From assembly GCF_014635685.1 (NCBI RefSeq), contig NZ_BMDH01000001.1, positions 744,001 through 808,000 on the forward strand: a stretch of 64,000 bases of DNA, in the 5' to 3' direction. The notes under the pieces were generated by a model. The model saw nothing but the letters and a program-made list of their open reading frames with translations, had not been told where the DNA came from and made no database searches. Numbering within the stretch: position 1 is the first letter of the stretch; every line of letters begins with the position of its first letter. A program made the position numbers and the translations under genes. Positions 24,867-33,046 of the stretch are shown here, in pieces. Source of the DNA: Galliscardovia ingluviei. GTDB lineage: Bacteria; Actinomycetota; Actinomycetes; Actinomycetales; Bifidobacteriaceae.

Positions 24867-25742
24867 TTATGCCTTAGTTATATGTCCGCCAAACTGATTA
24901 CGCAATGCTGAAACTACACGCAAAGTGTCAGATCCTGCACCACGAGAAACCTGACGAGCATAGAGTGCAGCAACTGTAGCAGGAACTGGTACACCAAGCT
25001 CTAATGCTGCTTCAACCATCCAGCGAGCTTCACCTGATTCGTCAGCTACAGCTGGCATATCATGCAGTGTCGGATCTTGCTGAGCAGCCAATGCGAAGAG
25101 GTCAAGCAACCAAGAAGCTACTACAGAGCCATCACGCCAAGAAGCCATTACTTCAGCTGGATTATCAATCAAATCAGAGTGAGTCATGGTGTCAAAGCCC
25201 TCACCCATGGCTTGCATCATGCCATATTCAATGCCATTATGCACCATCTTTGCGAAGTGCCCGCCGCCAACAGGACCAGCGTGTACCAAGCCGTTCTCGC
25301 CTTCTGGCTTCAATGCTTCTAAGTATGGGCGCACCCGCTCATAATCTTCTTGAGCACCACCAGCCATCAATGCATAACCACGTTCAGCTCCCCAGACACC
25401 ACCTGAGACACCGACATCAACAAAATGAATACCCTTTTCAGACAGTTCTTGAGCATGACGCGCATCATCGAGGTACTTGGTATTGCCACCATCAATGACG
25501 AGATCGCCTTCGTCGAGCAATCCTTTAAGCTCAGTAATTGTGTCATCAGTTGGAGCTCCTGCAGGAACCATAACCCAAACCACACGTGGGGCTTGTAATT
25601 TCTCAACTAACTCAGCAAGACTTGCTACATCGCGCTTAGACTCTGGGCTACGGTCATATCCCACTACAGTGATGCCATGGTTACGCAAACGCGTTGCCAT
25701 ATTGCCACCCATACGACCGAGACCAATCATACCGATTTCCAT
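24867..25742 (-). CDS. gnd: 6-phosphogluconate dehydrogenase, decarboxylating (short form)
   Basis: Oxidises 6-phosphogluconate to ribulose-5-phosphate, CO2 and reduced nicotinamide cofactor. The 291-residue size fits the short GntZ/YqeC type rather than the ~470-residue Gnd. Visible are the Rossmann motif GLGRMGG (7-13), the substrate loop GVSGGVWGAERGYALMAGG and the catalytic segment KMVHNGIEYG. ATG 25742 follows AAAGGAG. An in-frame opening 75 bases earlier lacks such a site. It is the last gene of a gluconate module after gntK and gntP. A GTGTG/CACAC hairpin (25853-25868) straddles the junction with gntP. Confidence 0.93.
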   Translation of the reverse strand: MEIGMIGLGRMGGNMATRLRNHGITVVGYDRSPESKRDVASLAELVEKLQAPRVVWVMVPAGAPTDDTITELKGLLDEGDLVIDGGNTKYLDDARHAQELSEKGIHFVDVGVSGGVWGAERGYALMAGGAQEDYERVRPYLEALKPEGENGLVHAGPVGGGHFAKMVHNGIEYGMMQAMGEGFDTMTHSDLIDNPAEVMASWRDGSVVASWLLDLFALAAQQDPTLHDMPAVADESGEARWMVEAALELGVPVPATVAALYARQVSRGAGSDTLRVVSALRNQFGGHITKA

Positions 25743-25852
25743 GAGTTCTCCTTTACTCTGCGATTCCACTCGTGTGATTGTATTTGTGATTGTGATTAAT
25801 GTGCATTTCCTCATCACAATGTAAATTAAATTTGTTCAATCCTCAAGTATTT

Positions 25853-25869: not shown

Positions 25870-27213
25870 CTAGAATGCCAAGCTGAGCAACATTACTACT
25901 GCCAATCCAAAGACTGAAAGTACTGTTTCCATCATTGACCATGTTTTAATAGTCTGCCCCACTGATAGGTGGAAGTATTCTTTAATAAGCCAGAATCCCG
26001 CATCGTTGACATGAGAGAAGAATACCGATCCTGCGCCAATAGCAAGTACCAATAGAGAAACCATTGGTGAGCTTAAATCCATAGTCTGTACTAGTGGCGC
26101 CATAATTCCTGCGGCAGTTACTGTTGCAACTGTTGCAGAACCAGTTGCCAATCGGATTAACACTGCAACAAGCCATCCTGCAAATAAAGGTGAGATTGCA
26201 GACTCAGTAATACCATGAGCAATAACATCAGCAATACCAGAATCTACCAGCGTTTGCTTAAAACCTCCACCTGCACCAACAATCAGCAAAATACTAGCAA
26301 TTGGGGCAAGCGAACCGCCAACAATCTTATTCAATTCATCACGTTTAACGCCGCGAGCAGTACCTAGAAGCAGCATGGCAACAACAGTGGTAATGAATAA
26401 TGCAGTAAGCGGCGAGCCAACAAATACCAAGAAACGACCGATAACACTACCAGCAGCACCTGCGATATCGATAATGGATGACATCATCATCAGTATTACT
26501 GGCAGCAAAATAATAAACAAAGACACTGCGAAACTTGGTTTATTATCATTGTCGGTTTGTTGTTGTTCATTTTCGGTTTCTTCTGGAGCTAATACTGGCA
26601 CCCAACGTGCAGCCAGTTTGGCAAACAAAGGACCGGCAACAATTACTGTTGGCACAGCTACCAGTAAGCCGAGCCCAAGAGTTAAACCAAGATTGGCATG
26701 AACTGAGCTAATTGCTGCAAGAGGGCCTGGATGTGGCGGTACAAAAGCATGCAGCGTAGAAAGTCCAGCAAGTGCTGGAATAGCAATAATCATCAATGGC
26801 TGGTGCAAGCGACGTGCAGTATAGATCACCACTGGAATTAAGATCACTACACCAACTTCAAAAAAGAGTGGAATACCGACGCAGAATGCAATTAAGGCCA
26901 TAGCCCATGGCAACGATCGTGATGTTGTTTTTGCAATAATAGTATCTACGATGCGGTCTGCACCACCAGAAGCAACCAGTAAGGTGCCGATCATAGAGCC
27001 AAGCACGATAAGTAAACCAACATTCGCTACTGTCGCACCTAGACCAGTAGTAAAGCTATCCCACGATTTGTCGTATGCTACGCCAGCAAAAATTGCCATA
27101 CCAGCGCTACCGACCATTAGTGAGAGCAGCGGATGTAATTTAACTTGTGTGATAAGCAGAACAATAATAACGATACCTGCAATTGCAGCAAGTACTAAGT
27201 GTAATAACTCCAT
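25870..27213 (-). CDS. gntP: Gluconate/H+ symporter, GntP family
   Basis: A 447-residue integral membrane protein with ~12-14 hydrophobic helices that imports gluconate. Family landmarks include HAFVPPHPGPLAA in the first half and GATGSATVATVTAAGI-like sequence (RLATGSATVATVTAAGI) in the second. It acts with GntK and Gnd, which lie on either side. The start ATG 27213 follows AGGAAAGG at a rather long distance. Upstream is a 166-bp gap with unusual 10-bp phased repeats, so gntP may have its own regulated promoter in addition to read-through from gntK. Confidence 0.93.
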   Translation of the reverse strand: MELLHLVLAAIAGIVIIVLLITQVKLHPLLSLMVGSAGMAIFAGVAYDKSWDSFTTGLGATVANVGLLIVLGSMIGTLLVASGGADRIVDTIIAKTTSRSLPWAMALIAFCVGIPLFFEVGVVILIPVVIYTARRLHQPLMIIAIPALAGLSTLHAFVPPHPGPLAAISSVHANLGLTLGLGLLVAVPTVIVAGPLFAKLAARWVPVLAPEETENEQQQTDNDNKPSFAVSLFIILLPVILMMMSSIIDIAGAAGSVIGRFLVFVGSPLTALFITTVVAMLLLGTARGVKRDELNKIVGGSLAPIASILLIVGAGGGFKQTLVDSGIADVIAHGITESAISPLFAGWLVAVLIRLATGSATVATVTAAGIMAPLVQTMDLSSPMVSLLVLAIGAGSVFFSHVNDAGFWLIKEYFHLSVGQTIKTWSMMETVLSVFGLAVVMLLSLAF

Positions 27214-27266
27214 TGTTATGCACTACCTTTCCTATAGGTTGGGTACTGTTGTGTATTGTGGATATA

Positions 27267-27296
27267 TCTACGTGCCTCTACATGCGTCTACATGTA
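27267..27296. repeat. Three phased 10-bp repeats upstream of gntP
   Basis: TCTACGTGCC, TCTACATGCG and TCTACATGTA follow each other without gaps (consensus TCTACRTG plus two variable bases). One unit equals about one helical turn. An imperfect palindrome, TAGATA...TATCTA, follows at 27321-27338. No coding potential. Confidence 0.7.
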
Positions 27297-27379
27297 TTGC
27301 TATAAATTCCTATGTATTGGTAGATACGTGTATATCTATGCTGTATTGCTACATGAGTAATTAACTATGATCTCATGCA

Positions 27380-27892
27380 TCAGGCTTGGCGCTGATATGC
27401 TTCAACTGCAGCAATAGCTTGGTTAACCACATCTTCTACCGGTTGATTCACATTGATAACAACGCCGCGTTCATCAGCTTCAAGTGGTTGTAAATCAGCG
27501 TATTGGCTTTTGAGCAGAGACACTGGCATAAAGTGATTTTGGCGAGCTTTCATATGTTCATATACTGTATCAAATGCACCATCTAGATGTACAAAAAACA
27601 CATCAACACCTTCGCCAAGCACCTCTCGATAGCTGCGCTTGAGTGCTGAGCTGGACACTACAGAATTGTGATTGATAGCTTCTTTTGCAATCATCCACGT
27701 ATTAATAACGCGCAACCATGGCCAGCGATCTTCGTCAGTTAGCGCAATGCCAGCAGACATTTTGTCGATGTTTTGCTGCGGATGAAAGTCATCACCCTCA
27801 GCCATATCAAATCCGAGCCTGTCTCTAATAGCTTGTGCAACTGTTGATTTTCCAGAACCGGCAACTCCCATTACTACTACATGAATACTCAT
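27380..27892 (-). CDS. gntK: Gluconokinase
   Basis: Phosphorylates gluconate to 6-phosphogluconate with ATP. A 170-residue P-loop kinase with Walker A GVAGSGKST (9-17), the substrate motif EGDDFHPQQNIDKMSAGIAL and the lid region near WPWL. ATG 27892 follows AAGGAGAG. It is the first gene of gntK-gntP-gnd, read from a strong promoter that carries paired operators and faces the divergent GntR-family regulator gene. Gluconate would thus enter metabolism as ribulose-5-phosphate and feed the bifid shunt pentose phosphates. Confidence 0.94.
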   Translation of the reverse strand: MSIHVVVMGVAGSGKSTVAQAIRDRLGFDMAEGDDFHPQQNIDKMSAGIALTDEDRWPWLRVINTWMIAKEAINHNSVVSSSALKRSYREVLGEGVDVFFVHLDGAFDTVYEHMKARQNHFMPVSLLKSQYADLQPLEADERGVVINVNQPVEDVVNQAIAAVEAYQRQA

Positions 27893-27963: not shown

Positions 27964-27992
27964 ATCATAAATTAGAAAGTACTACTTGTCAA
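27964..27992 (-). promoter_or_regulatory. gntK promoter
   Basis: On the minus strand a perfect TTGACA (plus-strand 27987-27992) and TATGAT (27964-27969) are exactly 17 bases apart. They lie 72 bp before the gntK start. One copy of the palindromic operator fills the spacer. Confidence 0.8.
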
Positions 27993-28007
27993 TTTTAAGT
28001 ACTACTT
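27977..28007. promoter_or_regulatory. Paired AAGTACTACTT operators
   Basis: The 11-bp palindrome AAGTA-C-TACTT occurs at 27977-27987 and again at 27997-28007, 20 bp (two helical turns) apart. Its core GTnnnAC fits the FadR-subfamily GntR consensus. Copy 1 lies between the -35 and -10 boxes of gntK. Copy 2 lies at the -35 position of the gntR-side promoter. A partial GTACTACT copy is at 28148-28155. Confidence 0.8.
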
Positions 28008-28033
28008 TTGTGAGATAGATAATATTTTATAAT
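28005..28033 (+). promoter_or_regulatory. Promoter of the divergent GntR-family gene
   Basis: A perfect TATAAT at 28028-28033 on the plus strand has a weak CTTTTG 17 bases upstream, partly inside operator copy 2. The regulator is probably autorepressed from here. The leader to the start codon is ~140 bp. Confidence 0.55.
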
Positions 28034-28175
28034 CTTATCTGATGCCAGTACGAGAAACCGCATAAGCAGGGAAACCACACACCATTGTGTTTACATATCC
28101 ACAGTACAAGACTATTATTTTCTCATTGCATAGCATAGCTTTAAGACGTACTACTACTGATTACACAGGATGACC

Positions 28176-28880
28176 ATGAATACCACACAGCCCATGCAAC
28201 CTACTACCCTGCAATACGATGCCTGCAAAACACTGGCACTCGATATTCTTGAAGGACGCTGGACACCTGGTAATGCAATTACACTTGACGATATTCAAAC
28301 TCGATTCGATACCAGTCGTACGGTAGCAAGAGAAGTGGCAAAAAATCTTGAGAGCTTGAAAGTTGTTGAAATTCGCAAACGTGTTGGTCTCATCGCACAG
28401 GTTCCTTCCACATGGAATGCACTTGATTCCACAGTTATTCATTGGAAACTACAATCCTCGCATCGCATTGAAGAATTAATGCAACTTACACAGTTGCGTC
28501 TTGCTATTGAACCAGAGGCAGCAGCAGCTACAGCACAACATGCTTCTTTAGAATTACGAACCCAATTCATTGCGTGGGCAGCACAATTACGACTCTACGG
28601 ATTAGACAATCAGCTTGAACAGTTCCATGAAATTGATCAAAAGTTTCACTCAACAATTTTGCAAGCAAGCCACAATGATCTCTTTGCAACACTGAGTGAA
28701 ACTATTGATATTGTACTTGCTGGTCGTGTTGAAATTGGACTGTATCCTCCACAACCAAAAGTATCAGCAATAGAAAATCACGAAGCTGTTGCCAATGCTA
28801 TTGCGGAACAAAATCCAGAGCAAGCTCGTATAGCGATGCGGCGTATCGTTGATGAAGTAAGCGAAACACTGTACGCATAA
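28176..28880 (+). CDS. GntR family regulator, FCD (FadR-type) domain
   Basis: A 234-residue regulator with an N-terminal winged helix (about residues 12-75, containing TLDDIQTRFDTSRTVAREVAKNL) and a C-terminal helical FCD effector domain. That domain has conserved acidic and histidine positions (HEIDQKFHSTI; ENHEAVANAI), which usually bind a metal and a carboxylate ligand. It faces gntK-gntP-gnd, and paired GTnnnAC palindromes lie in the shared promoter region, so it very likely represses the gluconate genes until gluconate or 6-phosphogluconate appears. ATG 28176 is preferred over 28170 because AGGA is then five bases away. Confidence 0.9.
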   Translation: MNTTQPMQPTTLQYDACKTLALDILEGRWTPGNAITLDDIQTRFDTSRTVAREVAKNLESLKVVEIRKRVGLIAQVPSTWNALDSTVIHWKLQSSHRIEELMQLTQLRLAIEPEAAAATAQHASLELRTQFIAWAAQLRLYGLDNQLEQFHEIDQKFHSTILQASHNDLFATLSETIDIVLAGRVEIGLYPPQPKVSAIENHEAVANAIAEQNPEQARIAMRRIVDEVSETLYA

Positions 28881-32959: not shown

Positions 32960-33046
32960 GTTGTCCCTTACTTATTGTTATTTGCGAAAGTATAGTAGTA
33001 CGTTTGCGTAATGTAAGCTCTTATTACTTACTTGAGCTTAGCGCGC

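What the first reader, a model, noticed from the sequence alone, without database searches (positions are those of the whole stretch)
27964..28033. Complete divergent gluconate switch: two palindromic operators on two facing promoters
AAGTA-C-TACTT occurs twice, 20 bp apart. One copy fills the spacer of a TTGACA-17-TATGAT promoter for gntK. The other covers the -35 position of a TATAAT promoter for the divergent GntR/FCD gene. The core GTnnnAC fits the FadR-type GntR consensus. The layout predicts simultaneous repression of both directions and a loop-free, same-face binding of two dimers.
Basis: partly seen in the sequence, partly recalled or inferred. Interest (0 to 1): 0.6.

Follow-up and report, generated by a model that had tools for sequence, protein, structure and literature searches.

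The report
Phased operators between gluconate genes
The spot is the control region of an ordinary gluconate-use gene cluster in a bifidobacterium relative, where two or three evenly spaced copies of a repressor-binding site sit on the gene switch; the layout is conserved in related bacteria and is a good example of a known kind of switch.

Summary
The two perfect palindromes AAGTACTACTT (27977-27987 and 27997-28007, centres 20 bp apart) are real. They lie between gntK-gntP-gnd (minus strand) and a divergent GntR/FCD regulator gene (plus strand). A matrix built only from relatives ranks them 1st and 3rd among all positions of the 64-kb window. It also finds a weaker third site, centre 28022, exactly 20 bp further on, overlapping the proposed gntR -10. 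In 31 Bifidobacteriaceae gntR/gntK divergons two sites flank the gntK -35; the commonest best distance is 21 bp (25 of 31), and only the window has 20. The spelling of the site changes with the regulator clade; the window's own genus carries a different spelling at the same place. The gntK promoter is confirmed and conserved. The gntR promoter is not settled: TATAAT 28028-28033 has no usable -35, and a better match lies at 28090-28118. Repression of gntK by the adjacent GntR is likely. Simultaneous repression of gntR is not shown; the Streptomyces counterpart activates its own gene. No second gluconate-related target was found among the other genome sites inspected. New member of a known kind: a FadR-type divergon with multiple operators.

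The parts
27977..27987 (.). Operator A, perfect palindrome AAGTACTACTT, in the spacer of the gntK promoter
   Evidence: rank 3 in 64 kb with a matrix from relatives only
27997..28007 (.). Operator B, perfect palindrome AAGTACTACTT, just upstream of the gntK -35
   Evidence: rank 1 in 64 kb
28015..28029 (.). Probable weak operator C (ATAGATAATATTTTA, centre 28022), 20 bp from B, overlapping the proposed gntR -10
   Evidence: rank 5 in 64 kb; per-position probability about 2e-4 in this composition; a site one period past B also occurs in L023-L027
27964..27992 (-). gntK promoter, TTGACA (27992-27987) - 17 nt - TATGAT (27969-27964)
   Evidence: 11 of 12; TTGACA exact at the same place in 23 of 31 divergons and a close variant in the rest
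28028..28033 (+). TATAAT, candidate gntR -10 without a recognisable -35
   Evidence: best -35 has 2 of 6
28090..28118 (+). Alternative gntR promoter TTTACA-17-TATTAT
   Evidence: 10 of 12
28146..28156 (.). Possible extra operator, ACGTACTACTA (core 28148-28154), 22 nt before the gntR start codon; not significant by score
   Evidence: (6.8 bits)
28170..28880 (+). gntR: GntR HTH + FCD-domain regulator, 236 aa (ATG at 28170 or 28176)
27380..27892 (-). gntK: gluconokinase, GntK/IdnK type
   Evidence: TIGR01313, 185 bits against a cut-off of 114
25870..27213 (-). gntP: gluconate:H+ symporter family
   Evidence: TIGR00791, 447 bits against a cut-off of 293
24867..25817 (-). gnd: short-form 6-phosphogluconate dehydrogenase (profile starts at residue 26, so the real start is probably near 25742)
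   Evidence: TIGR00872, 324 bits against a cut-off of 297

Best explanation
The region is the operator/promoter of a gluconate catabolic divergon. Dimers of the adjacent GntR/FCD protein bind AAGTACTACTT sites A and B, and more weakly C, as a phased row on roughly one face of the DNA. Without gluconate they cover the -35 and the -35/-10 spacer of the gntK promoter and keep gntK-gntP-gnd off. Gluconate, or a close relative of it, releases the protein and induces the operon. The same row lies close upstream of, or on, the start of gntR and so probably autoregulates it; the sign is open. Shown here: the sequence anatomy, conservation of the promoter and of the site pair, and agreement of operator spelling with regulator clade. 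Inferred: binding by this regulator, cooperativity, co-transcription of the three genes, gluconate as effector, and the direction of autoregulation.
For: Domain and enzyme assignments. The gntR-gntK divergon occurs in 57 distinct loci, nearly all actinobacterial. GT-N3-AC sites 21 bp apart: 13 pairs observed, 0.07 expected in shuffles; 42 bp apart: 8 against 0.05. In 31 Bifidobacteriaceae the similarity of site A to the sequence at each offset peaks at +21 (8.13 of 13) and -21 (6.23), with most other offsets near 4. A relatives-only matrix places B and A at ranks 1 and 3 of 64 kb and adds C at 20 bp. Operator class follows the GntR tree: the GT-N3-AC group is one side of one branch. Precedent: SCO1678 binds the gntR-gntK region (PMC5425828); C. 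glutamicum GntR1/2 sites agree with TNGTNNNACNA and gluconate inhibits binding (PMC2230225).
Against: No binding or expression data for this protein. The window's regulator sits on a long branch (1.1 changes per column), so its place in the tree is unsure. Eight sampled congeneric genomes do not share the AAGTACTACTT spelling. The 20-bp spacing departs from the 21 bp of the relatives. Anchors and operator classes were chosen by eye after seeing the sequences, and related species are not independent.
Confidence: 0.85

Rival explanations
1. The sites repress gntK but activate gntR: B, and perhaps A, serve as activator sites for a gntR promoter that has no -35, as reported for the self-activating Streptomyces GntR.
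For: No -35 at TATAAT 28028-28033; with a start near 28040, B is centred about -38 and A about -58. SCO1678 transcription is fivefold higher on glucose in the wild type and the rise is lost in the deletion mutant.
Against: Probable site C overlaps the -10, which favours repression; a better constitutive-looking promoter lies at 28090-28118.
Confidence: 0.3
2. The array controls only gntK; gntR is transcribed independently from TTTACA-17-TATTAT at 28090-28118, beyond the array.
For: Best plus-strand promoter match, 10 of 12, close to the gntR start.
Against: The scan gave 3 promoter matches against 1.7 expected in shuffles, so this match alone is weak; a possible operator at 28146-28156 would still touch its transcript start region.
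Confidence: 0.3
3. The palindromes are bound by another regulator, for example one of carbon catabolite control, and not by the neighbouring GntR.
For: No binding data; identical single sites occur elsewhere in the genome without gluconate genes.
Against: FadR-type core next to a FadR-type gene; operator spelling changes together with the GntR clade; sites lie in conserved gntR/gntK divergons.
Confidence: 0.06
4. Chance repeats in an AT-rich spacer.
For: The single motif is not clearly enriched genome-wide: 149 places with up to one mismatch against 127 for the reversed control.
Against: Relatives-only matrix ranks and conserved spacing.
Confidence: 0.01

Closest known systems
Streptomyces coelicolor gntR (SCO1678) / gntK-gntP-gntZ divergon (PMC5425828)
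   Same: FadR-subfamily GntR divergent from gluconokinase, permease and 6-phosphogluconate dehydrogenase genes; EMSA on the gntR-gntK region; gluconate and gluconolactone examined as effectors
   Different: The parts of that paper read here did not give operator sites; it activates its own gene, which is untested here
Corynebacterium glutamicum GntR1/GntR2 (PMC2230225)
   Same: FCD-type gluconate regulators; repress gntK, gntP and gnd; sites near TNGTNNNACNA; gluconate inhibits binding
   Different: Genes scattered, regulon wider (ptsG, pentose phosphate genes); here only a local target is indicated
FadR-subfamily divergons with double sites (Suvorova et al. 2015, PMC4494728)
   Same: Two operators between a regulator gene and its target; 29 of 100 such FadR divergons have a near-constant distance between sites, read as cooperative control of both operons
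   Different: Here the row probably extends to a third site, and in bifidobacteria the sites straddle the gntK -35; that paper gives 2 nt between GT and AC for GntR, here it is 3
GntR gluconate regulon of Bifidobacterium dentium (PMC4746261)
   Same: Gluconate GntR regulon predicted in a related species
   Different: Its motif was not readable here, so identity of the sites could not be checked

Membership tests
GntR family, FadR subfamily regulator | GntR winged-helix domain (PF00392) followed by an FCD domain (PF07729) | tested here: met
   37.7 and 73.1 bits, above the gathering scores of 27.0 and 24.3
GntR family, FadR subfamily regulator | Operator with GT-N2/3-AC palindromic core | tested here: met
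   GTACTAC in both sites; binding itself untested
Gluconate (gnt) operon under GntR | gluconokinase and gluconate permease genes next to or divergent from gntR | tested here: met
Gluconate (gnt) operon under GntR | Gluconate releases the regulator and induces the operon | not testable with these tools
   known for relatives only
FadR divergon with common (cooperative) double sites | Near-constant distance between sites across species | tested here: met
   21 bp in most Bifidobacteriaceae (best or joint-best offset in 25 of 31), 20 in the window
FadR divergon with common (cooperative) double sites | Both operons controlled by the pair | not testable with these tools
   gntR promoter not settled

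The most novel reading that the evidence does not exclude
In Bifidobacteriaceae the gnt operator is a phased row of two to four dimer sites whose 21-bp period and position on the gntK -35 have been kept while the spelling of the site changed (AAAGTAnTACTTT, AAAGAGTACTTT, AAAGACTCTTT). One residue of the DNA-binding domain goes with the first class: Lys58 in all 16 GT-N3-AC regulators, Arg in the 15 others. The window is the one case found with a 20-bp period, and it has the most symmetrical site pair.
Probability: 0.5. Interest if true: 0.4.

Novelty: new member of a known kind. Interest (0 to 1): 0.25.

Why it matters
It gives a concrete, testable operator map for gluconate use in a bifidobacterial lineage. 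It also gives a small natural series in which operator spelling changes with the regulator while the spacing of the sites stays fixed, which is useful for studying how regulator and operator co-evolve and whether cooperativity fixes the spacing. It does not overturn anything known.

Tried and rejected
Wider regulon: the other exact AAGTAnTACTT places lie in or beside genes unrelated to gluconate, and pairs of GTAnTAC cores 17-25 bp apart are no more frequent than the reversed control, 9 against 11. Site at 32998 between the two pntA-type genes (rank 2 by matrix): expected 0.2 per 64 kb and absent from the relatives, where the two genes abut, so treated as chance. GT-N2-AC and GT-N4-AC versions in the divergons: fewer than expected and no preferred spacing. 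DNA match of the region in the eight congeneric genomes: none. First genome-contig scan with the single protein found nothing; the alignment scan worked.

Full report
OBSERVATION. The sequence holds AAGTACTACTT at 27977-27987 and 27997-28007, centres 27982 and 28002, 20 bp apart. The promoter scan finds TTGACA-17-TATGAT on the minus strand, 27992..27964, with 11 of 12 matches. Copy A sits in its spacer and touches one base of the -35; copy B is just upstream of the -35. On the plus strand TATAAT is at 28028-28033, but no -35 at spacings of 15-19 has more than 2 of 6 matches. The better plus-strand match is TTTACA-17-TATTAT at 28090-28118, though the scan as a whole found 3 sites against 1.7 expected.

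GENES. Minus strand: gluconokinase (27380-27892), GntP-type gluconate symporter (25870-27213), and a 6-phosphogluconate dehydrogenase of the short form (24867-25817), all above curated cut-offs. Plus strand: a 236-aa protein with GntR and FCD domains, hence a FadR-subfamily regulator. The closest solved chain by profile is 7c7e, a putative DNA-binding regulator. The layout equals the Streptomyces coelicolor SCO1678/gntK-gntP-gntZ divergon (PMC5425828).

CONSERVATION. Regulator relatives were taken from whole genomes of the family and from named genomes. Fifty-seven distinct loci have gntK divergent from the regulator. In these spacers GT-N3-AC cores occur 87 times against 50 expected. Pairs 21 bp apart occur 13 times against 0.07 expected, and 42 bp apart 8 times against 0.05. 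Aligned on the gntK -35, 31 Bifidobacteriaceae show site A, then TGTCAA (or a close variant), then site B. Similarity of A to the sequence at each offset peaks at +21 (8.13 of 13) and -21 (6.23), most other offsets lying near 4; 21 is the best or joint-best offset between 14 and 30 in 25 of the 31, and 20 is the best only in the window (11 of 13). In five others (L004, L007, L055, L016, L029) site A is degenerate and another offset scores higher. TTGACA is exact in 23 of the 31 and a close variant in the other 8.

BLIND TEST AND THIRD SITE. A matrix made from sites A and B of 13 relatives, window left out, ranks B first and A third among all positions of the 64-kb window. Rank 5 is ATAGATAATATTTTA, centre 28022, exactly 20 bp beyond B. 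The per-position chance of such a score in this composition is about 2e-4. It overlaps the proposed gntR -10. In L023-L027 a GT-N3-AC core also lies 21 bp beyond B. So the window's row is probably A-B-C with a 20-bp period. A fourth possible site at 28146-28156, next to the gntR start codon, is not significant by score.

SPELLING AND CLADE. The window's eight sampled congeners lack AAGTACTACTT and mostly carry AAAGAGTACTTT-like sites at the same place; Alloscardovia has AAAGACTCTTT-like sites. On a GntR tree the GT-N3-AC group, window included, is one side of one branch (support 94/85), but the window's branch is long and its place unsure. In the printed HTH alignment all 16 GT-N3-AC regulators have Lys where the other 15 Bifidobacteriaceae have Arg (window residue 58). 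This is one evolutionary change, so it is a correlation only.

MECHANISM. The simplest reading is repression of gntK-gntP-gnd by GntR dimers placed on and beside the -35, released by gluconate. Double sites at near-constant distance in FadR divergons are a described class, read as cooperative control (PMC4494728). Gluconate inhibits DNA binding of C. glutamicum GntR1/2 (PMC2230225). The effect on gntR is open: site C on the -10 favours repression, whereas the missing -35, the position of B near -38 and the self-activation of SCO1678 favour activation.

LIMITS. No wet data; classes and anchors were picked by eye; related species are not independent; the published bifidobacterial gluconate motif (PMC4746261) was not readable. 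The other exact genome sites that were inspected are not near gluconate genes, so a local regulon is the best guess, not a proof.

Noticed in passing
32991-33005: TATAGTAGTACGTTT, second-best matrix match in the window, in an 87-bp gap between the two pntA-type transhydrogenase genes; in the relatives examined these genes abut and no such site was seen.
   Followed up: yes
28141-28155: TTAAGACGTACTACT, 80% identical to the stretch 27972-27986, ends 14 nt before the gntR ATG; several congeners have a GGTAATCTTTTT-like stretch directly before their gntR start.
   Followed up: partly
24867-25817: The gnd reading frame starts about 25 residues before the region that matches the 6-phosphogluconate dehydrogenase profiles; the true start is probably near 25742.
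   Followed up: no
27214-27379: 166-bp gap between gntP and gntK rich in variants of CTACATGTATTG / TATATCTA; nature unknown.
   Followed up: no
L028, L042, L044, L013, L034: Relatives in which the regulator gene is present but no gntK lies divergent beside it; their spacers were not studied.
   Followed up: no
window 28170-28880: The window's GntR lies on a much longer branch than the other bifidobacterial orthologues and carries the operator class of another genus group than its own congeners; fast evolution or transfer not separated.
   Followed up: partly
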